Source of the DNA: Candidatus Doudnabacteria bacterium
GTDB taxonomy: Bacteria > Patescibacteriota > Doudnabacteria > UBA920 > 2-01-FULL-46-14
Assembly: GCA_023246055.1 (NCBI GenBank)
Contig: JAHFJD010000004.1
Span: 1 to 41,753, forward strand
Direction: 5' to 3'
Length of the DNA: 41,753 nucleotides
This document shows, one piece after another, positions 16,351 through 40,535 of this stretch. Position numbers and translations under genes: made by a program. Below the pieces are notes generated by a model. The model saw nothing but the letters and a program-made list of their open reading frames with translations. It did not search any database and was not told the DNA's origin. Within the stretch, counting starts at the first letter, position 1. Every line of letters begins with the position of its first letter.

Positions 16351-16545
16351 GCCCTATCCGGATTGACCAATTTTTTAAATACTTGCCCGCCTTTGTACTT
16401 TTTAATCTGTCACTCTCTCAACCATGTGGATTTTTTACCCGGGAATGCTTCACTCGGTCGAGTTCCGCTCGCCCCAAAAAATCAATAACCAATAAATTCT
16501 ACCATGAATTTTTAGTTTATCCAATTTTGTTGAACCTTTCGTAGT

Positions 16546-16581
16546 TGTGGCAAATTCCTGCGGCCGCAGGAATTTGCCACA
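16546..16581. repeat. 36-bp perfect palindrome (right behind stop codon of the Cas2-like gene)
   Basis: tgtggcaaattcctgcggccgcaggaatttgccaca. Confidence 0.95.
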
Positions 16582-17133: not shown

Positions 17134-17181
17134 TCTATTTGTGGCAAATACCTGCGGCCGCAGGTATTTGCCACAAATAGA
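17134..17181. repeat. 48-bp perfect palindrome (upstream of Cas2-like gene)
   Basis: tctatttgtggcaaatacctgcggccgcaggtatttgccacaaataga. Confidence 0.95.
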
Positions 17182-17219: not shown

Positions 17220-18578
17220 TCAAAACAGAACGTTTTGTTTTTTTGAGTCAAATTTTCCTCTCTCCCCTTCTTCAAAGACTTTAATAATCCCATAAACTCC
17301 GTCGTAACCCGGTGTTTTTATCACCCGCTCTTCACGCACACGTTTAACCGCTTCGGCCACCAGCTCTCCGGCGACTGTCTTCAAATCCTCAATCGGCAGA
17401 TCGAGAATCACGGCAAATTCACTGCCCGCTCGGCGGATAAGCTTCCAATAAATATCCTGAATCTTTTTGCTCTTGGAGCCAACCTCAAAACAGTCAGCCA
17501 ATACTTCCTCAAGCGGCACCAAGTGTTTTTGGGGGATGAAATTTTTCGGAACAAATCCTTCCGGCCGATCTGCAAGATCACTGACTCGGGACACCACTCC
17601 GACGACTAACCCGCGACCGCAGACTGGGCAACGGCCACCGGCTCGGCGCGTTTGATCGGGAGTATAGAAAATTTTGCACGGTCCATGACCATCAAGGTGA
17701 TATTTCCCCTCTTCGGGAAAATACTCGATAGTGTATTTGAGGCGTGTGCGGTCTTTCTCTTTGAGGATTCGGAAATATTCAGCATAAGATAATGCGTCCT
17801 CCGGAATCTCCATGACTGTAGCCTCGCGCCCAATGCGCGGCAGAGAATGGGCATCCGAAGCGGAAACGATCGAGAAGCGATCCGTGATCGACACACGCCA
17901 ATTCATAGCCGGATCAGAGGATAGGCCAGTCTCAAAAGCGTAAATATATTTTGTCATATCCCCAAAACATTCCTCGATCGAATCAAAACCGGATTTACTG
18001 CCAAAAATCCCGAAATACGGCGTCCAGGCGTGTGCCGGGATCATCAGCGCAGTCTCGTCTGCATCAAGCAAATATTTCAAAATCTCCACGGAATTCATGC
18101 CCAAAATCGGTCGGCCATCGCTTCCGAGTTTGGCCCCGCGTTTTTCCAAAGAATTCGTGAATTTTTCGACAGCCGCAAACGATGGCAAAAGCAATACATA
18201 ATGCACCCGCCGCATTTTCTTTTCGCCCTGGGAATAGATACAGGCCACCTCGGATGACAGTATAAATCTCACCCCTCCCTCGCCCTCCCCCTCCAGGGGA
18301 GGGAAATTCGTATTTATTCCTTCCCCTTGTCCCACTTTTATTCCCCTCCCTTGATGGGAGGGGCTGGATGAGGGTGATCGTAATTTAAAAAATCCCTGTT
18401 CTGCTTCCTCCAGCTTTTCTCGGAGTTCCGCTCTCCACCCTGGATGCGTAAAATCACCCGTGCCCAGGAGATTGACGCCTTTGATCCGCCCCCATTTGTC
18501 TAAATTTTCCGGAATCAAATCCCGGGAACACGCCCGGGAATATTTGGAATGGATATGGATATCGGAGATAACACGCAT
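17220..18578 (-). CDS. PHP-domain endonuclease Q-like protein
   Basis: 'MRVISDIHIHSKYSRACSRDL', 'GTGDFTHPGW', 'SASDAHSLPRIGREAT', 'CPVCGRGLVVGVVSRVSDLADRP'; contains an in-frame repeat insertion. Confidence 0.85.
   Translation of the reverse strand: MRVISDIHIHSKYSRACSRDLIPENLDKWGRIKGVNLLGTGDFTHPGWRAELREKLEEAEQGFFKLRSPSSSPSHQGRGIKVGQGEGINTNFPPLEGEGEGGVRFILSSEVACIYSQGEKKMRRVHYVLLLPSFAAVEKFTNSLEKRGAKLGSDGRPILGMNSVEILKYLLDADETALMIPAHAWTPYFGIFGSKSGFDSIEECFGDMTKYIYAFETGLSSDPAMNWRVSITDRFSIVSASDAHSLPRIGREATVMEIPEDALSYAEYFRILKEKDRTRLKYTIEYFPEEGKYHLDGHGPCKIFYTPDQTRRAGGRCPVCGRGLVVGVVSRVSDLADRPEGFVPKNFIPQKHLVPLEEVLADCFEVGSKSKKIQDIYWKLIRRAGSEFAVILDLPIEDLKTVAGELVAEAVKRVREERVIKTPGYDGVYGIIKVFEEGERGKFDSKKQNVLF
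18269..18379. repeat. C/G-rich palindromic repeat inserted in EndoQ-like CDS
   Basis: cacccctccctcgccctccccctccaggggaggg...cccctcccttgatgggaggggctggatgagggtga, read through as 'RSPSSSPSHQGRGIKVGQGEGINTNFPPLEGEGEGGV'. Confidence 0.85.
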
Positions 18579-18671
18579 AATATGGATTATAAACAAAAGA
18601 GAGGCGAACCACAAAGGGTTCGCCCCACTAACAGGGGTTGTTACCAATTAAGAAGCACTATGTTGCCGGCC

Positions 18672-20653: not shown

Positions 20654-20711
20654 TGTCATTCCCGCGAAAGCGGGAATCCAGTCTGGATCCCGGATCAAGT
20701 CCGGGATGACA
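20654..20711. repeat. 'tgtcattcccgcg...gggatgaca' palindromic repeat
   Basis: tgtcattcccgcgaaagcgggaatccagtctggatcccggatcaagtccgggatgaca; related copies at 34256, 35792, 36898. Confidence 0.9.
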
Positions 20712-20720
20712 AATTGATCC

Positions 20721-21950
20721 TTAATTTATCACTTTTAATTCTCTACCAACCTCTTCAAAAGCCGCAATGGCTTTATCGAGATGTTCTCGAGTATGGGCAG
20801 CGGAGAGCTGTACTCGGATCCGCGCTTTGCCTTTGGGGACTACGGGATAAGTAAATCCACGCACATAAATGCCTTTCTTGAATAGTGCTCCGGCCATATC
20901 AAAAGCTAATTTTTCTTCGCCCAGCATTACCGGAGTGATTGGATGTTTCCCGTCGCCTCCGAGTTTAAATCCCAGCTTGTCCATGGCAGATCGGAAATAA
21001 TTGGTATTGTCGCGCAGGGTTTCGAGTCGGGTACTGAACTCTATATCGAAATTCTTCAAAGTATAGAGCGCGGCCGCGGCAATCATGGGCGGCAAGGAAT
21101 TGGAAAAGAGCGAGGTGCGGGAACGTTGGCGCAAATATTCGATAATCTCTTTGCGACCCGCGGTAAACCCGCCGCCCGCCCCGCCTAGAGCCTTGCCAAA
21201 AGTTGAGGTGAGGATGTCCACACCACCCATAACGCCTGCCTGCTCAATACTGCTGCGACCAGTTTTGCCAAGCACTCCGGAAGCATGTGAATCATCCACC
21301 ATGACCATGGCCCCGTATTTGTCGGCCAAATCGCAGATTTCTTTTAGCTTGGCAGTATCGCCGTCCATGCTAAACACCCCGTCCGTGGCAATCAACATCC
21401 TCTTTCCCCTCCCTTGAGGGGAGGGGCTGGGGGAGGGTGATCTTGAAGAAAACTCTTTCAACTTCTCTTCCAAATCCCCCATGTCACTATGCTTGTATCG
21501 AAACCTTTCTGCTTTGCAAAGCCGCACACCGTCAATAATCGAAGCATGATTGAGCTCATCACTAAAAATCGCGTCCCCTTCCTGCAGAATGGTTTCGAAA
21601 AGCCCGGTGTTGGCATCAAAACACGAAGTGTAGAGAATCGCATCCTCTGTACCGAAAAATTTGGCGATTTCCGCTTCCAAGTCTTTGTGCACTGTCCCGG
21701 TACCGCAAATAAATCTCACCGAAGCCATACCGAAACCGTATCTTTCAAGTCCGTCTGCGGCCGCCGTTTGCATTTCCTCACTGCCAGCAAGACCCAAATA
21801 ATTGTTACCGCAGAAATTCAGAAGCTGCTTGCCGTCAACTTCAATTTCGGCTCCCTGTTTGCCGCTAATTGTCTTTTCCTCTTTCCACGTGCCAGCAAGA
21901 TGAATATCTTCCAAATCCTTTTCAAATTGTGATTTGTAGTTTGTGAACAT
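20721..21950 (-). CDS. kbl: glycine C-acetyltransferase (2-amino-3-ketobutyrate CoA ligase)
   Basis: '[12 protein letters not shown]', '[11 protein letters not shown]', '[15 protein letters not shown]', '[18 protein letters not shown]'. Confidence 0.93.
21402..21441. repeat. C/G-rich repeat inserted in kbl CDS
   Basis: tttcccctcccttgaggggaggggctgggggagggtgatc, read as '[14 protein letters not shown]'. Confidence 0.8.
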
Positions 21951-21952
21951 AA

Positions 21953-22663
21953 TTATTCTCTCTTTTTATAAACTGCCCATATCCTTGCAGTTTTTTTATC
22001 TGGTGTTTCTGCCGCTCTCAACTGTTCGTGTGGTTCTGCAGTGATCTCAAATCCATATTCTTCACCCAGTTGTCTCAACTCTTCTGCGCTGAAATAATGC
22101 TGGGCTATATCTTTTTTGATACCCTGTCGATCTGCACCAGTAAAGCCAAGTCCCTGCCCACGCATATCCTCGGTAATTTCCCTTTCTTCCGAATCATCAT
22201 TAACTGATCTACCCATGAACAGAAAATATTTCTCCGGTTTGAGGACTCTGTTTATTTCCTTGAATGATCCTCTCACTCCTTCAATATTATTGTGGTGGAT
22301 AGCGCCGGTACTGATGACAAAATCAAAGCTTCCGTCTCCAAACGGCAACTCGGCACTCTGGCCCTTTACGAAATTCGCTCGGAGATTCTGCTCTGCTAAC
22401 CTTCTCTGCGCTGCGCTGATCATCCCTTCTGACAAATCAAGGCCGGTGACATTAAATCCGTCCCGAGCCAAAGGCATAACATAACGCCCGTTTCCGCTGC
22501 CAACATCCAAAACATCGCGGCCCAATTCAGATTTGTGCTGTGCGCAGAATTGATTGAAAAATGGATCAGGGCCTTCGTCCTCTCTCCAGCCTCTCTCACC
22601 TTCTTTATCCCAGTAATCTCTGGCCTTTTCTAAATTGTTTGGTCGTAAATTTTCCGGTGGCAT
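21953..22663 (-). CDS. class I SAM-dependent methyltransferase
   Basis: '[33 protein letters not shown]'. Confidence 0.92.
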
Positions 22664-23970
22664 TACATTTGAATTAAAAATTTCGGATGATTATTGATCA
22701 TATTTTCAAACCGCTCTTTAGTGTACTCGCCAATCGGCAGAATAGTTCCTTGCCCTTGATCTAGTATAACATTATACAGCTTTTCCTGAATCTGGTTTTT
22801 GGGATCTTCGAGGAGTGCGCGTGTCATCTCCCACGTCCGCCAAATCTGCCGGCCGATTACAGCGTGCATGGTAAAACCATGCACTATGAGGCGGTTATAA
22901 TTCTCAATCACAAAATCACCGCTTTTGATGCCAAACAAAATGATCTCGCCACCGCGACGCGTGGCAAAGAGGCAATTGTTCACAGACGAGTTAAAACCAG
23001 ACATTTCAAACGACACATCCACCCCTACGCCTTTGGTGATGTTCATAATCTCGTCGGTGATTTCAGGATTGTGCGAATACATTTCACCCCTCCCTTGCCC
23101 TCCCCCTCGAGGGGAGGGAATAATACCGGGCTTCTCTGCATTTTCCTCCCCCTTGAGGGGGGATGTTGGGTGGGGGTGAGTTTTCAATGGAATGACGTAA
23201 TCTATCCCCAATTTCTTTGCCATGTTAATTGAAATTGGATTCGGCTCCACACCGATGATACTCTTCGCGCCCCTGGCCCTAGCAATCAGCAAGAGAAACA
23301 GTCCGATGGGTCCCAAACCAAAAATCGCCACTGTTTTGTCTTTCAGATCCACTTTGCTTGCAGCATGAACAGCGTTACCAAATGGCTCTTGCATGGCTGC
23401 TACCTCTGGCCGGATCTTGGCAGTGTTGGTTTTCCAGACAATGTGCGCTGGCACTCGGACATATTCTGCAAATCCTCCATCATGGGAAATACCCAAAATC
23501 TTCTCGTTAGTGCACACCTCTTTTTGCCCGCGTAGACACTGGTAGCATTGGTTACAAACCACGTGCGATTCACATGCTACAAAATCGCCTTTTTTGATCC
23601 CTTTCACACCTCTGCCAACCTCAACCACTTCTCCAAAGAATTCGTGACCAATTATTCTATAGGTATTTTCACCCCTCCCTTGCCCTCCCCCTCGAGGGGA
23701 GGGAATAGCCCCGGACTTTCCTGCATTTTCCTCCCCCTTGAGGGGGGAGGTTGGGTGGGGGTGAAATTCCGACTCTAAACTCCCCAAAATCTGCTCCTTG
23801 AACGCCTGCCGATACCAAATCCCCTTGTCTGACCCACACACGCCAGCATAATGGACCTTGATCATAACGTCCGTATCGCTTTCCACTTTGGGCATGGGCA
23901 CCTGCGCTAACTCGAAGCCAGTTGATTCATCCCACTTTGTTTTACTCTTGTCGAATATTAATGCGCGCAT
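22663..23970 (-). CDS. tdh: L-threonine 3-dehydrogenase-like zinc alcohol dehydrogenase
   Basis: 'HYAGVCGSDKGIW', 'IIGHEFFGEVVEVG', 'CNQCYQCLRGQKEVC', 'VAIFGLGPIGLFLLLIARARGAKSIIGVEP'; contains two in-frame repeat inserts. Confidence 0.9.
   Translation of the reverse strand: MRALIFDKSKTKWDESTGFELAQVPMPKVESDTDVMIKVHYAGVCGSDKGIWYRQAFKEQILGSLESEFHPHPTSPLKGEENAGKSGAIPSPRGGGQGRGENTYRIIGHEFFGEVVEVGRGVKGIKKGDFVACESHVVCNQCYQCLRGQKEVCTNEKILGISHDGGFAEYVRVPAHIVWKTNTAKIRPEVAAMQEPFGNAVHAASKVDLKDKTVAIFGLGPIGLFLLLIARARGAKSIIGVEPNPISINMAKKLGIDYVIPLKTHPHPTSPLKGEENAEKPGIIPSPRGGGQGRGEMYSHNPEITDEIMNITKGVGVDVSFEMSGFNSSVNNCLFATRRGGEIILFGIKSGDFVIENYNRLIVHGFTMHAVIGRQIWRTWEMTRALLEDPKNQIQEKLYNVILDQGQGTILPIGEYTKERFENMINNHPKFLIQM
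23084..23179. repeat. C/G-rich repeat, tdh insert 2
   Basis: read as 'HPHPTSPLKGEENAEKPGIIPSPRGGGQGRGE'. Confidence 0.92.
23669..23766. repeat. C/G-rich repeat, tdh insert 1
   Basis: read as 'HPHPTSPLKGEENAGKSGAIPSPRGGGQGRGE'. Confidence 0.92.
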
Positions 23971-24137
23971 AAAATCAGCCAATCTCGCCCCGTAGTGAAC
24001 GGTACTCCGTTCTACTACTGGCGTCAAAACCGCGGGAATTGTCCCAATCTGTTTTGGCTTTATTGAATATTAACGCTTGCATAGAGATAATTTATATGAT
24101 AATGTTGGGAATCCACAACTCCAAGGGGGGCACATAA

Positions 24138-24872: not shown

Positions 24873-26807
24873 TTATTCTACAGTAACTGATTTCGCTAGA
24901 TTCCTCGGCCGGTCGACATCGCGGCCCAAATTCACTGCTATATAATAGGCAAAGAGTTGCAAGGGAATGGTGTTGAGAAGCGGCTCGAGGAGTTCCATAG
25001 TTTTCGGCACAAATATTATATCATCGGCCACTTCTTTTGCTTCCTCATCGTCTTCCGACGCGATTATCAAGGTCCGCGCGCCCCGCGCCCGCGCTTCCAT
25101 AATATTACTTTTCATTTTTTCAAACAGCTGATTGCGCGTCAAAATTGCGACCACTGGGAAATCCTCGGACACGAGCGCGAGGGGGCCATGTTTCATTTCT
25201 CCTCCCGCATAACCCTCGCTATGAATATAGGAAATTTCTTTGAGCTTGAGCGAGCCTTCCAGCGCCACAGGGTAGTTTACCCCACGGCCGAGAAAAAACA
25301 TATTTTTATAATGAGCATATTTTTTGGCAATTTTTTTGATGTTTTCGGCCTGCTTCAAAATCTCATTCATCTTCCCTGGTATCTCGAGCAGAGATTCCAA
25401 AAATCTTTTCCCTGTTGCCACGTTAACGTGCTTTAGTCGTCCCAACTGCAAGGCATTGAGCAAAAGCAGAGCAACCATGTTAGTGTACGCTTTGGTGGAC
25501 GCCACAGCCATTTCTAGACCTGCGTGAATATACGAACCAGCTTTGGTCTCGCGAGCGATTGTCGAGCCGACCACATTGATAATCCCTCGAACATGCGCGC
25601 CTTTTCGCTTGGCCTCTCTCACAGCCATAATCGTATCCGCAGTCTCACCTGATTGTGAGACAGCATAGACCAAAGTTTTTTTATCAACGATCGGATCGCG
25701 ATAGCGAAATTCGCTGGAAAAATCCACCTCGCAAGGGACTTGCGCCAGTCTCTCAAACGCATATTTGCCGACAAGCCCGGCATAGTAAGCCGTACCGCCT
25801 GAAATGATATTGATTCTTTTCAAATCCCGCAGTTGATCCTCGCTGATATTCAATCCTCCAAGATGGGCTGTCCCCTCTTCCATATCTAACCGCCCACGGA
25901 TCGCGTCCTCAAACACTGTTGGCTGTTCCATGATTTCCTTGAGCATAAAATGCTCGTAACCGCCCTTTTGCGCCTTTGCCTGATCCCAATCAATTTGCAT
26001 CGTACCTTTAGTAATCAGTTCGTCTTTTAGATTGGAAATGCGCAGGTTGTCCCGTGAAATCTCCGCTACCTCACCATCATCGAGAAAAGTCACTTGTTTG
26101 GTATAGGCGAGCATAGGGGTCACGTCAGAAGCAATATAATGCTCCCCTTCAGCCACGCCCACAACCAAGGGACTGCCGAGCCTCGCGGCAATAATTTGGT
26201 CAGGGTGATCAGCGTGCACTGCCAAGAGTCCATATGTGCCACGGACATCGCTAAGGGCTCTGCGCACAGCATTAGCAAGTGTATTTTCACCCCCACCTTT
26301 ATCCTCCCCCCTCAAGGGGGAGGAATTCCCCTCCCTTGCCGTGCCCGCCGAAGCTTCGTGCGAAGGCTGGGAGGGGAGGGGTTGGGGGAGGGTGGAATAA
26401 TAATCCGCAATCAAATGTGCCAGCACCTCGCTGTCAGTATCTGATGTAAATTTATATCCTTTTTTAACAAGCTTCTTTTTGAGCTCGCGGTAGTTTTCAA
26501 TGATGCCATTGTGTACTATGGCCAATTTGCCATCCATTGCGACGTGCGGGTGAGCGTTTTCTTCAGTCACTCCGCCATGCGTAGCCCACCTGGTATGGGC
26601 AATACCGAGCGTACCAGGATAATTTGAGTCTTTCAATTTCCCGACAAGGTTATCAATCTTGCCTACAGCACGAACCCGCTCAATCTTGTTTTCATGTAAC
26701 AAGCAGATACCCGCGCTGTCATAGCCGCGATATTCCAAATCCCGCAGTCCTTGAACGAGGATGGGCAGGGCTTGTTTATTGCCAATGTATCCGACTATGC
26801 CACACAT
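24873..26807 (-). CDS. glmS: glutamine--fructose-6-phosphate aminotransferase (isomerizing)
   Basis: 'MCGIVGYIGNKQALPILVQGLRDLEYRGYDSAG', 'TRWATHGGVTEENAHPH', 'ESLLEIP', C-terminal 'NLAKSVTVE'. Confidence 0.97.
   Translation of the reverse strand: MCGIVGYIGNKQALPILVQGLRDLEYRGYDSAGICLLHENKIERVRAVGKIDNLVGKLKDSNYPGTLGIAHTRWATHGGVTEENAHPHVAMDGKLAIVHNGIIENYRELKKKLVKKGYKFTSDTDSEVLAHLIADYYSTLPQPLPSQPSHEASAGTAREGNSSPLRGEDKGGGENTLANAVRRALSDVRGTYGLLAVHADHPDQIIAARLGSPLVVGVAEGEHYIASDVTPMLAYTKQVTFLDDGEVAEISRDNLRISNLKDELITKGTMQIDWDQAKAQKGGYEHFMLKEIMEQPTVFEDAIRGRLDMEEGTAHLGGLNISEDQLRDLKRINIISGGTAYYAGLVGKYAFERLAQVPCEVDFSSEFRYRDPIVDKKTLVYAVSQSGETADTIMAVREAKRKGAHVRGIINVVGSTIARETKAGSYIHAGLEMAVASTKAYTNMVALLLLNALQLGRLKHVNVATGKRFLESLLEIPGKMNEILKQAENIKKIAKKYAHYKNMFFLGRGVNYPVALEGSLKLKEISYIHSEGYAGGEMKHGPLALVSEDFPVVAILTRNQLFEKMKSNIMEARARGARTLIIASEDDEEAKEVADDIIFVPKTMELLEPLLNTIPLQLFAYYIAVNLGRDVDRPRNLAKSVTVE
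26286..26397. repeat. C/G-rich repeat inserted in glmS CDS
   Basis: read as '[38 protein letters not shown]' in the glutaminase domain. Confidence 0.9.
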
Positions 26808-27265: not shown

Positions 27266-28108
27266 CTATAACTTATTCCAAACAAATTCAAAAATCATCT
27301 TTTGCGTCTCGTAAAGGCCCTGGTCTTCTATGATAACACCAACTGGTTCGCCTGTCGCGGACAAAGATATCATGGCCACTTTCCCACCGTAAATAATCAT
27401 ATAAGTCGGCGTGCTTTCTTTTTCTGACAGGCATCTCCGCTCATCAAGACCCGCGAGCTCCCCGCCTTTGCCAAAAGCAATAACCCGGTTGGCTACACCC
27501 GCCTTGATTCGATCTTTGTTGAAATTGGAATAAGCTTTGTAGAGATATTGTTTGATGTCAGATGAAGAGTAGACATAATAAGTTGAATTCATAACTCCCC
27601 TTCCACCCCCTCTTATCTTAAGAGGGGGAACTCCTCCCCTTAAACTAAGGGGAGGTTGGGAGGGGTTATTACTCATTGTCGCTAGCACGTCCTGCAAGAT
27701 GATTCTCAAGCCTGCGCTACCTTCATAATATTTGGCCACAGGCCGCGCGCCGGATTTTTCGTACAAGGATTCCAATTCTGGCAAAGATTTGCTAATATGA
27801 ACCTTAAGTGTGTCCAAAGACCGCTTCTTGTTTTCGACAGCATCGAGAAGCTTCTGCGGCGGCTCAGCCACGAAATACTGCTTTTTCTGATCTTTCCCGC
27901 CAGAGGTGGATCGAGATTGGTATTGCTTGTAAAAACTCACCACACCAAGCTTCAGAAGCCGCTCGAGAATGTCATAAGTGGTGCCGCGATTGACTTGTGA
28001 CTGTTTGGCTATCGCGCTTGCTGGTGCTGGACCTAAAGAAATCGAGGCCAAATATACAGAAATTTCCTTTTCATCTAGACCAAACTGTAGGAGATTTTCT
28101 ACAATCAT
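27266..28108 (-). CDS. TrmB-family helix-turn-helix regulator
   Basis: 'LLQFGLDEKEISVYLASISLGPAPASAIAKQSQVNRGTTYDILERLLKLGVVSFY'; contains an in-frame repeat. Confidence 0.88.
   Translation of the reverse strand: MIVENLLQFGLDEKEISVYLASISLGPAPASAIAKQSQVNRGTTYDILERLLKLGVVSFYKQYQSRSTSGGKDQKKQYFVAEPPQKLLDAVENKKRSLDTLKVHISKSLPELESLYEKSGARPVAKYYEGSAGLRIILQDVLATMSNNPSQPPLSLRGGVPPLKIRGGGRGVMNSTYYVYSSSDIKQYLYKAYSNFNKDRIKAGVANRVIAFGKGGELAGLDERRCLSEKESTPTYMIIYGGKVAMISLSATGEPVGVIIEDQGLYETQKMIFEFVWNKL
27595..27669. repeat. C/G-rich repeat inserted in TrmB-like CDS
   Basis: read as 'NNPSQPPLSLRGGVPPLKIRGGGRGV'. Confidence 0.88.
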
Positions 28109-29174: not shown

Positions 29175-29648
29175 TTAACGGGGATTGTATTTTTTTTGTA
29201 GACGTGAAAAATCATCAGCCAGCCGTATGGCATCGTGAAGCTCTGGAGAGGAAACTTCCAAAACCTGCACGTTATCCTTCGGGGCTGATATCCGGTGAAC
29301 AGTCTGCGCCTGGCAATGAAACACCATTCCGGGTTTGGCTTGAAATTTTTTCATATCAAGAGCAATGGTTGGATGCCCTTCGAGAACCAGCCAGCTTTCA
29401 GCTTTGATCTTGTGCTTTTGCAGAGAAAACCTCTTACCCTTTTCAAAATACATTATTTTTCCGGCATAGCGGTTGGTAAAAATCAGCCACACCTCCCCGC
29501 CCCAAGGCTTTTCCTGAGCAATCGGCTTCACAAGGCCACTCCCACCCCGGTGTAGAGCTTTGCTCACAGCAAATCCGTCTTTGTAGATTTTTATTTTTCC
29601 AAAACGTTTTTCGATGAGCTTGCGGATTGCGGAATTCATAACTTTCAC
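29175..29648 (-). CDS. cupin protein, mannose-6-phosphate isomerase type II-like
   Basis: 'KPWGGEVWLIFTNRYAGKIMYFEKGKRFSLQKHKIKAESWLVLEG', 'CQAQTVHRISAPKD'. Confidence 0.85.
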   Translation of the reverse strand: MKVMNSAIRKLIEKRFGKIKIYKDGFAVSKALHRGGSGLVKPIAQEKPWGGEVWLIFTNRYAGKIMYFEKGKRFSLQKHKIKAESWLVLEGHPTIALDMKKFQAKPGMVFHCQAQTVHRISAPKDNVQVLEVSSPELHDAIRLADDFSRLQKKYNPR

Positions 29649-29681
29649 CCCTCCCTTGCCCTCCCCCTCAAGGGGAGGGAA

Positions 29682-30698
29682 TTATGTACTGATTCGATTA
29701 GCTAGATATTCGAGAAGGCTAGTGAGCTGGGTGACATAGCCCCATTCATTGTCATACCAGGCCAGGACGTTTACAAACGAGCCGTCCACGACCTCTGTGG
29801 ACAGCAAATCAATAGTCGCACCGGCAGGGTTGCCCTGATAATCGCGCGACACCAGGGGCAGGTCAGAAACCGCGAGTTGGCCTTTGAGATGAGTCTTACT
29901 GGCTTTGATAAATGCATCGTTAATAGTTTTTGCCATGGTCTTTTTATTCAATTGTGCGGAAAAGGCAAGAACGGACGGATCAAGCACTGGCACACGAAAC
30001 GACATGCCGGAAATTTTATCTTTAAGCTTTGGGAACATCTTGCCAATGGTTTGGGTGACACCTGTGGTTGATGGAATGATCGACTGACTTGCGGCCCTGG
30101 CGCGTCGCAAATCTCTATGGGAGTTGTCCACCAAGCTTTGATCAGATGTAAAGGCATGGACTGTGTTGATGAAACCCCGCTGGATGCCGAAATTTTCTTC
30201 GAGGACTTTCACAACGAGCGAGGAACAGATAGAGGTGCATGAGGCCCCGGATATTATTTTGTGCTTTTTTGGATCAAAAGTTTTGTGATTTACCCCGTAA
30301 ACCAGCGTGGCTTCTAGGTCGTGGCCGGGCGCGCTCACCACCACGTACCTGGCGCCGGCTTTAATATGCTGTGCGGCTTCTGCACGATTCTTATGTTTTC
30401 CGGTAGCGTCCAAGACCAAGTCGGTTTTGTACTTCCGCCAGGGCAAATCAAAGCTCTCGGTTTCTTGGATGAATGGAACGGCCTTGCCTTCAATAACTAA
30501 ATTCTTTCCCTTCACCTTCACTTCTTTGTCCCACAAGCCATAGGTAGAATCATATTTGAGAAGGTGCGCGTAGGTTTCGAGATCGGAACGGCTGTTGCTA
30601 GCCACAATCTCAAAATGCGGATTATTCCAGGCAATCCGGAGAAATATCCGGCCGATTCTCCCCAGTCCATTTATCGCAAGTCTAATTGGTTTTGCCAT
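29682..30698 (-). CDS. gap: type I glyceraldehyde-3-phosphate dehydrogenase
   Basis: 'INGLGRIGRIFLRIA', 'SGASCTSICSSLVVKVL', 'LAWYDNEWGYVTQL'. Confidence 0.96.
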   Translation of the reverse strand: MAKPIRLAINGLGRIGRIFLRIAWNNPHFEIVASNSRSDLETYAHLLKYDSTYGLWDKEVKVKGKNLVIEGKAVPFIQETESFDLPWRKYKTDLVLDATGKHKNRAEAAQHIKAGARYVVVSAPGHDLEATLVYGVNHKTFDPKKHKIISGASCTSICSSLVVKVLEENFGIQRGFINTVHAFTSDQSLVDNSHRDLRRARAASQSIIPSTTGVTQTIGKMFPKLKDKISGMSFRVPVLDPSVLAFSAQLNKKTMAKTINDAFIKASKTHLKGQLAVSDLPLVSRDYQGNPAGATIDLLSTEVVDGSFVNVLAWYDNEWGYVTQLTSLLEYLANRIST

Positions 30699-34101: not shown

Positions 34102-34477
34102 CAATCATGTTACTTCGTAACAAAATTTCTAATTACTAATTTCTAAATAAATCCCAATGATTTAATTTCAAAATTAGAAACATTATTACGTGGCATGGAC
34201 ATTTCTGCCATGCTCTCTATGTCGCCATAGAGTTCAGACTATATCTTTACTCTCCTGTCATCCTCGGGCTTGACCCGGGGATCCAGAACTGGATTCCCGC
34301 CTTCGCGGGAATGACATCGAAAGATGTTGAGCGTGTAGTCGTTGAGGGTTCCTTAAAAAATTAAGATCTTCCCTGCTGATAATCCGCAATCGAAGATTAT
34401 TACGCAATAAATTACGTACTCCAATATACACGGGTTTTCCAGCATATAGCTCAATTTATAGACAGCTTTGGTCACTC
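34102..34477 (-). mobile_element. ORF-less group I intron at about E. coli 23S position 2604
   Basis: exon GAGACAGT^TTGGTCC; core motifs ATATGCTGGAAA, AATCAGCAGGGAAG, CCTCAACGACTACACGC, AAGATATAGTC; exon ends in U, intron in G. Confidence 0.9.
34256..34316. repeat. tgtcattcccgcg-family repeat in intron loop
   Basis: tgtcatcctcgggcttgacccggggatccagaactggattcccgccttcgcgggaatgaca. Confidence 0.9.
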
Positions 34478-35437: not shown

Positions 35438-35791
35438 TAGAGTAGCTTTTATCCGTTGAGCTTCCACCATACCACTATGGATGGTCGGATCACTAACTTC
35501 CACTTTCGTGCCTGCGCGGCGTGCTTGCCTTGCAGTTAAGCCAGCTTATGCGTTTGCACGACCAGCGCGATTTCCATCCGCGCCTAGCTGACCTTTAAAC
35601 GCCTCCGTTACCTTTTAGGCAATTATGTTACTCGTTCTTCTTTCTCCCCTTCGTGAGGGGGAGATTAAGAGGGGGTTATGGAATTCATAACCTCCCCTAG
35701 CCCCTCCTCACGAGGAGGGGAACGGGTACGCGCATTTCTGCCGCACTCTGCATGTCGCCATGCAGTTCAGACTATATCACTATCCTCACCT

Positions 35792-36156: not shown

Positions 36157-36726
36157 AAATTATCCTTTCCTGCTGGTTGTCTGCACCAAGCTGATTTTCA
36201 CTTTGGCACATAAACCATTAATTAGGTTTATTATACCAAAGTACAGTTGGATACTCCAGATGTTCCAGCATATAGCCAAGTTTTTTTCTTCTAATGTTGC
36301 CATTAGAGGGCCCGGTATGACGCTTCCTCGACAAAAAGTCAAGGCGTAACGTATCGCGCCATACTTCCAGGCAACCGCCCCAGTTAAACTACCCACGAGC
36401 CACTGTCCCTGTGATGGTTAATCACGGGTTAGAATCAAAATTCATTCAGGGTGGTATTTCATATTGCGACTCCTCTCGAGCTAGCGCCCGAGACTCAAAG
36501 TCTCCCACCTATACTAAACAGAACAAATCTTGACCCAATGACACGCTATAGTAAAGCTTCATAGGGTCTTTCCGTCTTGCTGCGGGTAAACGGCATCTTT
36601 ACCGATAATGCAAATTCATCGAGCTATTTGTTAAGACAGTCCCCCACTCGTTATGCCATTCGTGCGGGTCGTAACTTACACGACAAGGAATTTCGCTCGG
36701 ACCATTGTTACTCATTCCGTGTAATA

Positions 36727-36820
36727 TTCCTCCCCCTCGATGGGGGAGGTTAGGTTAGGTGGGGGTGATTATTTAATAATTCACCCTTCCCTTGCCCCTC
36801 CCATCAAGGGAGGGGAATAA
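36727..36820. repeat. C/G-rich repeat in intron periphery
   Basis: ttcctccccctcgatgggggaggttaggttaggtgggggtga...tcacccttcccttgcccctcccatcaagggaggggaa. Confidence 0.85.
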
Positions 36821-36897
36821 ATCCCGGAATTGGTGCGATCGTTTCCGTCGCACTCTCTGTGTCGCCACAGAGCTCGGACTCTATCTTCATCTTTGTC

Positions 36898-40359: not shown

Positions 40360-40535
40360 CCTCTCCCCGAATGGGAGAGGGGGGACCGGTACTCCGGTGG
40401 GTGAGGGATGGTGTAGCCAAGGCTACGCAGTGCACGGCAAGCATTTATTTTCCCTCCCCAGGCGTGGGGAGGGATTAAGGGAGAGGTCGTCGGTTTTTAT
40501 TCCCCTCCTCGTGAGGAGGGGTTGGGGGAGGTTAA
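40360..40535. repeat. cluster of three C/G-rich palindromic repeat units
   Basis: ccctctccccgaatgggagagggg; ccctccccaggcgtggggagggattaagggagaggtcg; cccctcctcgtgaggaggggttgggggaggtt. Confidence 0.8.

What the first reader, a model, noticed from the sequence alone, without database searches (positions are those of the whole stretch)
23084..23766. Two copies of one palindromic repeat inserted in frame in the same enzyme (tdh)
The tdh ORF contains 'HPHPTSPLKGEENAGKSGAIPSPRGGGQGRGE' and 'HPHPTSPLKGEENAEKPGIIPSPRGGGQGRGE', encoded by two near-identical ~96-bp C/G-rich repeats. They lie before 'YRIIGHEFFGEVVEVG' and between the NAD-binding region and the C-terminal part. Both are stop-free in this frame. 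Known precedent: Rickettsia palindromic elements (RPE) in coding genes.
Basis: partly seen in the sequence, partly recalled or inferred. Interest (0 to 1): 0.72.

Follow-up and report, generated by a model that had tools for sequence, protein, structure and literature searches.

The report
Mobile DNA repeats inside enzyme genes
In a tiny, uncultured bacterium (Ca. Doudnabacteria), short hairpin-forming DNA repeats have landed again and again inside essential genes without breaking them, adding floppy loops of about 30 residues to enzymes such as threonine dehydrogenase, repeatedly at the same few tolerant spots.

Summary
Two 98-bp repeats (23082-23179, 23667-23764; 93% identical, same orientation) lie in frame in a threonine-dehydrogenase-like gene (tdh) and add ~34 residues at two loops that are empty in other homologues. 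The genome belongs to Ca. Doudnabacteria (Patescibacteria/CPR). Each repeat is a head-to-head dimer of two ~38-bp half-units. Hairpin plus G-rich tail follow a mirror rule (0/1000 tail shuffles reach it), the hallmark of the BoxC/"TM" intrastrand-triplex motif, which is reported as strictly intergenic in E. coli. In 236 kb of this genome, 33 of 50 such elements sit inside genes, all in frame, including secA, guaA, prfB, tsaD, murE, carA, glmS and kbl. This is close to the share expected for random placement, and no broken gene was found. Across relatives, the same two TDH loops and one KBL loop carry unrelated repeat classes (triplex-type or CGTC-like REP dimers), at least seven changes in TDH. 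AlphaFold gives a normal TDH fold with only the two inserts disordered. Translation is inferred; the mobility enzyme and any function are unknown.

The parts
22663..24027 (-). tdh: zinc-dependent L-threonine 3-dehydrogenase-like ORF carrying both inserts (likely ATG start at 23970)
   Evidence: ADH_N and ADH_zinc_N; best NCBIfam hit L-threonine 3-dehydrogenase, below its cut-off; fold matches solved TDHs 2dfv/2d8a; near kbl
23667..23764 (-). insert 1 (N-terminal): head-to-head dimer of half-units type a + type c; adds FHPHPTSPLKGEENAGKSGAIPSPRGGGQGRGEN before TYRIIGHEF
   Evidence: residues 70-100 have pLDDT<50
23082..23179 (-). insert 2 (C-terminal): second copy, 93% identical, between the NAD-binding half and the C-terminal part
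   Evidence: residues 265-294 have pLDDT<50
21403..21440 (-). single half-unit (type b) in frame in kbl (2-amino-3-ketobutyrate CoA ligase), loop before [15 protein letters not shown]
   Evidence: same loop holds other inserts in 5 relatives and is empty in 5
26286..26394 (-). dimer-like element with an extra nested hairpin, in frame in glmS
18266..18377 (-). dimer (a+b) in frame in a TIGR00375-family gene (ORF 17223-18647)
29643..29685 (.). single half-unit between a GAPDH gene and a cupin/mannose-6-phosphate isomerase-like gene
36724..36827 (.). intergenic tail-to-tail pair of half-units (c and b)
40451..40533 (.). further triplex-type pair, other subfamily, near the N terminus of a 189-aa ORF
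27592..27668 (.). further triplex-type pair, other subfamily, in a 280-aa ORF

Best explanation
The two inserts are copies of a non-autonomous repeat: a head-to-head dimer of BoxC/TM-type intrastrand-triplex half-units (pyrimidine arm - loop - purine arm - linker - purine tail that mirrors the purine arm). Copies spread through the chromosome with no visible preference against genes. Because the sequence is almost free of stops in most frames, some insertions extend a gene in frame. Only those with a net length divisible by three, in tolerant surface loops, survive. The extra codons are then translated as a proline/glycine-rich, disordered loop in an otherwise normal TDH; they are not spliced or bypassed. 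The same loops are hit repeatedly because they are the tolerant places in the fold. Shown: repeat family, mirror rule, in-frame placement, true insertion, re-use of loops, predicted disorder. Inferred: translation, enzyme activity, near-neutrality. How copies move is unknown; without a RAYT-type transposase, copying at stalled or single-stranded replication intermediates is my favoured guess (about 35%), ahead of any single other route such as an unrecognised or lost transposase.
For: Repeat family and dimer structure. Mirror (triplex) rule: 66 distinct units, mean triad score 0.85 against 0.61 for the direct orientation; tails dealt at random among units 0.590 +/- 0.023, 0/1000 reach it. Inside genes, in frame: 32 of 50 elements by script plus tsaD, which the gene filter missed; random 70-nt intervals fall inside genes 67% of the time. 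No broken gene where checked: elements between HD/DUF559/DHFR and PPase/DnaG genes separate distinct genes. Insertion borders: solved TDHs and relatives lack the segments. The same sites hold unrelated repeats in relatives; minimum 3 and 4 changes on the TDH tree; one KBL loop likewise. AlphaFold: the only two segments with pLDDT<50 are the inserts; the rest matches solved TDHs, TM-score 0.89-0.90 by target length. TM class: PMC4666352.
Against: No transcript or peptide evidence, so translation and lack of excision are inferred. No mobility enzyme found. Mobility is inferred from spread and from filled/empty sites between species, not between strains. The genome is a draft MAG at 92.8% completeness, and only 236 kb, chosen because it holds hits, was surveyed. 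'Inside' was scored by an ORF spanning the element, so frame-breaking copies had to be looked for separately and were checked in only a few places. The structure model used 13 sequences.
Confidence: 0.82

Rival explanations
1. The repeats are REPINs mobilised in trans by a REP-associated tyrosine (Y1) transposase, as in Pseudomonas or E. coli.
For: Inverted dimer of hairpin units, dispersed single and double copies; Y1_Tnp occurs in 27 of 50 genomes of the order.
Against: Y1_Tnp is absent from this genome and from all three other genomes of its family, two of them 99-100% complete, although one of these (G003) holds many similar copies. No GTAG or CGTC tag beside the stems (A1). The purine tail follows a triplex mirror rule instead.
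Confidence: 0.12
2. The inserts are removed after transcription or skipped in translation (mini-intron or bypass element), so the enzyme is wild type.
For: Strong RNA structure, z -3.3 to -3.9, as in some bypass elements (own knowledge).
Against: All intragenic copies examined keep frame and lack stops, which skipping would not require. Single half-units and unrelated repeat classes occupy the same loops. No splice or intein features seen.
Confidence: 0.04
3. The inserts were recruited and kept for function (loop diversification, regulation, partner binding).
For: Same loops re-used in several species; two GT4 paralogues carry inserts at the equivalent loop.
Against: Unrelated sequences at the same loop, empty sites in relatives, and disordered low-complexity composition fit tolerance rather than a specific function.
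Confidence: 0.1
4. Pseudogenes or assembly artefacts.
For: Draft MAG in 67 contigs.
Against: Invariant TDH residues intact; same phenomenon in independent MAGs from other projects; many core genes affected.
Confidence: 0.02

Closest known systems
Rickettsia palindromic elements (RPE; Ogata et al. 2000, 2002) and the Wolbachia equivalents
   Same: ~100-150-bp palindromic repeats, open in frame, inserted in conserved proteins of small-genome bacteria; no transposase named for them; Gmk with an insert is translated and active (described in PMC2229807)
   Different: Architecture here is triplex half-units with a mirror tail; different phylum; the same loops re-used by unrelated repeat classes
BoxC / PIT / TM intrastrand-triplex motif (Hoyne et al. 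2000, as cited there; Holder et al. 2015, PMC4666352)
   Same: G-strand hairpin plus antiparallel purine tail (class II triads), ~37 nt, single or inverted pairs of two different subtypes; BoxC-like units also occur in this genome
   Different: Reported as always intergenic in E. coli and not linked to mobile elements; here about two thirds are inside genes, in frame
GTAG/CGTC REPs and REP dimers/REPINs (Di Nocera et al. 2013, PMC3733652; REPIN paper PMC3116915)
   Same: Head-to-head dimers; some intragenic, including two insertions in one ORF. CGTC-like dimers occupy the same TDH loops in G026, G032 and G044
   Different: The tdh inserts studied here lack the tags; no RAYT gene found in the family

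Membership tests
BoxC/TM intrastrand triplex motif | Hairpin with purine arm 6-15 nt and short loop, followed after a short linker by a tail forming class II (G*G:C, A*A:T, T*A:T) antiparallel triads | tested here: met
   66 units, tail-arm match beyond all 1000 shuffles; the type a half-units of both tdh copies and the type c half of the N-terminal copy score 8/8
BoxC/TM intrastrand triplex motif | Folds as a triplex in vitro (CD/NMR) | not testable with these tools
   shown for the E. coli motif in PMC4666352, not for these sequences
BoxC/TM intrastrand triplex motif | Inverted pairs combine two different subtypes (reported 5/5 in E. coli) | tested here: met
   14 of 14 dimers heterotypic (one assignment tied), P 0.007 for random pairing
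BoxC/TM intrastrand triplex motif | Strictly intergenic location (as reported for E. coli) | tested here: not met
   32 of 50 inside genes (33 with tsaD). I treat this as a property of the E. coli set, not as part of the motif definition
Rickettsia palindromic element | Palindromic ~100-150-bp repeat inserted in frame in conserved proteins | tested here: met
   (98 bp)
Rickettsia palindromic element | Sequence homology to an RPE family | not tested
   no RPE sequence was aligned, so it is not filed as an RPE
REPIN / GTAG or CGTC REP | GTAG or CGTC tag next to the stem | tested here: not met
   read off the 23 half-units in A1: no such tag
REPIN / GTAG or CGTC REP | Cognate Y1 (RAYT) transposase in the genome or lineage (GTAG REPs, REPINs) | tested here: not met
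   none in 4 of 4 genomes of the family (drafts, 93-100% complete)

The most novel reading that the evidence does not exclude
Intrastrand-triplex motifs of the BoxC/TM class, so far seen as intergenic and not mobile, are mobile elements in Patescibacteria that move without a Y1 transposase and repeatedly colonise the same loops of core enzymes, so that unrelated repeats settle independently at fixed tolerant points of a protein fold.
Probability: 0.45. Interest if true: 0.7.

Novelty: new variant of a known kind. Interest (0 to 1): 0.6.

Why it matters
In-frame selfish repeats are classic for Rickettsia. Here they occur in the candidate phyla radiation, in essential genes of a small genome, and the repeat is of the triplex class reported elsewhere as strictly intergenic. 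Re-use of the same loops by unrelated repeats gives a natural insertion map of where a protein tolerates 20-45 extra residues, and a set of filled and empty sites with which to find out how palindromic repeats spread without a recognisable transposase. It also warns annotators: such inserts lower family scores (TDH falls below its NCBIfam cut-off, although divergence may also contribute).

Tried and rejected
A first TDH alignment used the wrong strand and was redone. carA looked frame-broken (N-side only 6 aa), but reading on into the adjoining stretch showed it in frame. Suspected broken genes near BoxC-like copies in L044 and at window 12046 turned out to be separate genes. A mechanical mirror score on raw hairpins was weak for near-symmetric arms and was replaced by the triad score with shuffles. 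Rejected: RAYT-mobilised REPIN as first choice, intron/bypass, pseudogene or artefact. Literature searches for a CPR report of this found none in the open-access library; subscription papers are mostly not covered.

Full report
Observation. The tdh ORF (22663-24027, minus strand) contains two 98-bp elements, 23082-23179 and 23667-23764, 93% identical and in the same orientation. Phmmer against solved structures breaks at these segments: Pyrococcus TDH aligns before and after, with the inserts missing. In the alignment of 13 relatives the two segments are absent from several TDHs at otherwise well-aligned positions. Three of six frames through each element are open and two more stop only at the last codon, so an insertion with the right length is often harmless to reading.

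Where it lives. Named relatives of the gene are Candidatus Doudnabacteria and other Patescibacteria. The genome is a 1.16-Mb draft in 67 contigs, 92.8% complete.

What the repeat is. Each element is a head-to-head pair of ~38-bp half-units separated by ~20 bp; half-units also occur singly. Three subtypes (a, b, c) were found. On the G-rich strand each reads pyrimidine arm - loop - purine arm - 2-5 nt - purine tail, and the tail is the mirror image of the purine arm (for example GGGGAGGG then GGGAGGGG; GGGGGAGG then GGTGGGGG). I tested this on 66 distinct units from 236 kb: the mean triad score (G*G:C, A*A:T, T*A:T, antiparallel) is 0.85, against 0.61 for the same tails read in the direct sense. 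Dealing tails at random among units gives 0.590 +/- 0.023, and none of 1000 reaches the observed value; shuffling bases in the flank gives 0.26. This is the anatomy of the BoxC / PIT / TM intrastrand-triplex motif, for which triplex folding was shown by CD and NMR in E. coli (PMC4666352). BoxC-like units (CCCTCTCCC hairpin GGGAGAGGG, tail TTGGGGTGAGGG) also occur in this genome. That paper reports E. coli inverted pairs as always combining type A with type B; here 14 of 14 dimers are heterotypic, one with a tied assignment (P 0.007 for random pairing). A likely reason, inferred, is that two identical halves would form a long perfect palindrome, which cells tend to delete.

Where the repeats sit. 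In the 236 kb surveyed (contigs with BLAST hits, so density is inflated but the coding share should not be), 50 elements were found: 32 inside genes, 2 at gene edges, 16 intergenic; one of the 16 is in fact inside tsaD, giving 33. Random intervals fall inside genes 67% of the time, so there is no visible depletion in genes. 'Inside' means that an open frame spans the element, so being in frame is part of the count; the independent finding is that I saw no conserved gene split by an element. Pfam and NCBIfam confirm that many hosts are ordinary core proteins and that many inserts interrupt a domain: secA (two elements), guaA, prfB, tsaD, murE, carA, glmS, kbl, comEC, a PGA_cap protein, a G5-domain protein and GT4 glycosyltransferases. 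Two GT4 paralogues carry different dimers at the equivalent loop. Intergenic elements that looked like gene-breakers proved to lie between different genes.

Same loops, different repeats. In TDH, loop 1 holds a triplex-type repeat in G000, G003 and G002 (different sequences) and a CGTC-like dimer (GTCATTGCGAGC with GCGAAGCAATC) in G026, G032 and, decayed, G044. Loop 2 holds triplex-type repeats in G000, G028 and G032 and a CGTC-like dimer in G026. Other relatives are empty. On the TDH tree this needs at least 3 and 4 changes. A third loop, in KBL before [12 protein letters not shown], is filled in six species (window, L053, L054, L055, L057, L059) and empty in five (L052, L056, L058, L063, L064). 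The two tdh copies are each other's closest relatives (93%, shared spacer), while most other dimers are 67-88% alike, so one tdh copy probably derives from the other or they undergo conversion.

Effect on the protein. AlphaFold with 13 relatives gives mean pLDDT 78. The only segments below 50 are residues 70-100 and 265-294, the two inserts. The rest matches Pyrococcus TDH (2dfv, 2d8a; TM-score 0.89-0.90 by target length). Invariant TDH residues are intact. The simplest reading is a normal enzyme with two floppy loops; in Rickettsia, Gmk with such an insert is translated and active with altered substrate affinity (PMC2229807). The mRNA of each element is strongly structured (z -3.3 to -3.9).

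Mobility. Y1_Tnp (PF01797) is absent from this genome and from the three others of its family, but present in 27 of 50 genomes of the order. No GTAG or CGTC tag flanks these half-units. A RAYT origin is therefore not supported, though draft gaps remain. The mobility enzyme is unknown; copying at stalled or single-stranded replication intermediates is a guess.

Comparison and novelty. In kind this is the RPE phenomenon; intragenic REP dimers, even two in one ORF, are also known (PMC3733652). New here: the host lineage, the triplex-class repeat inside genes (reported as always intergenic in E. coli), the near-random share in core genes, and the re-use of the same loops by unrelated repeats. I found no earlier report for CPR in the open-access library. 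Verdict: new variant of a known kind.

Noticed in passing
20654-20682 and 34288-34316: CGTC-like palindromic repeat (TGTCATTCCCGCGAAAGCGGGAATCCAGT), inverted copies; a second repeat class in the same window, the first copy between cofD-like and kbl genes.
   Followed up: partly
23930-23971 and 24042-24083: The first ~14 codons of tdh appear twice: an upstream 42-nt stretch, 74% identical, reads MQALIFNKAKTDW on the minus strand, like a remnant of a partial tdh duplication.
   Followed up: no
16542-16581 and 17136-17175: Two near-identical palindromic stretches of 40 nt (TGTGGCAAATTCCTGCGGCCGCAGGAATTTGCCACA) 594 bp apart.
   Followed up: no
34200-34254, 35733-35787, 36840-36894: Three copies of a 55-nt repeat (CATTTCTGCC...GTCGCCATAGAGTTCAGACTATATC); could be a structured RNA or another mobile repeat.
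   Followed up: no
26286-26394 and L048:3379-3493: Half-units that themselves carry a nested second palindrome (in glmS and a GT4 gene), still in frame: repeats inside repeats.
   Followed up: no
L044:10449-10482, L044:10821-10853, L043:1311, L046:3886-3920: Units close to the E. coli BoxC/TM motif in this CPR genome; one (L046) lies inside murE in frame, 177 codons from the start.
   Followed up: partly
L061:1936-3318: A more distant TDH homologue has a further insert at a third site (after IVKIGSKV) besides loop 2.
   Followed up: no
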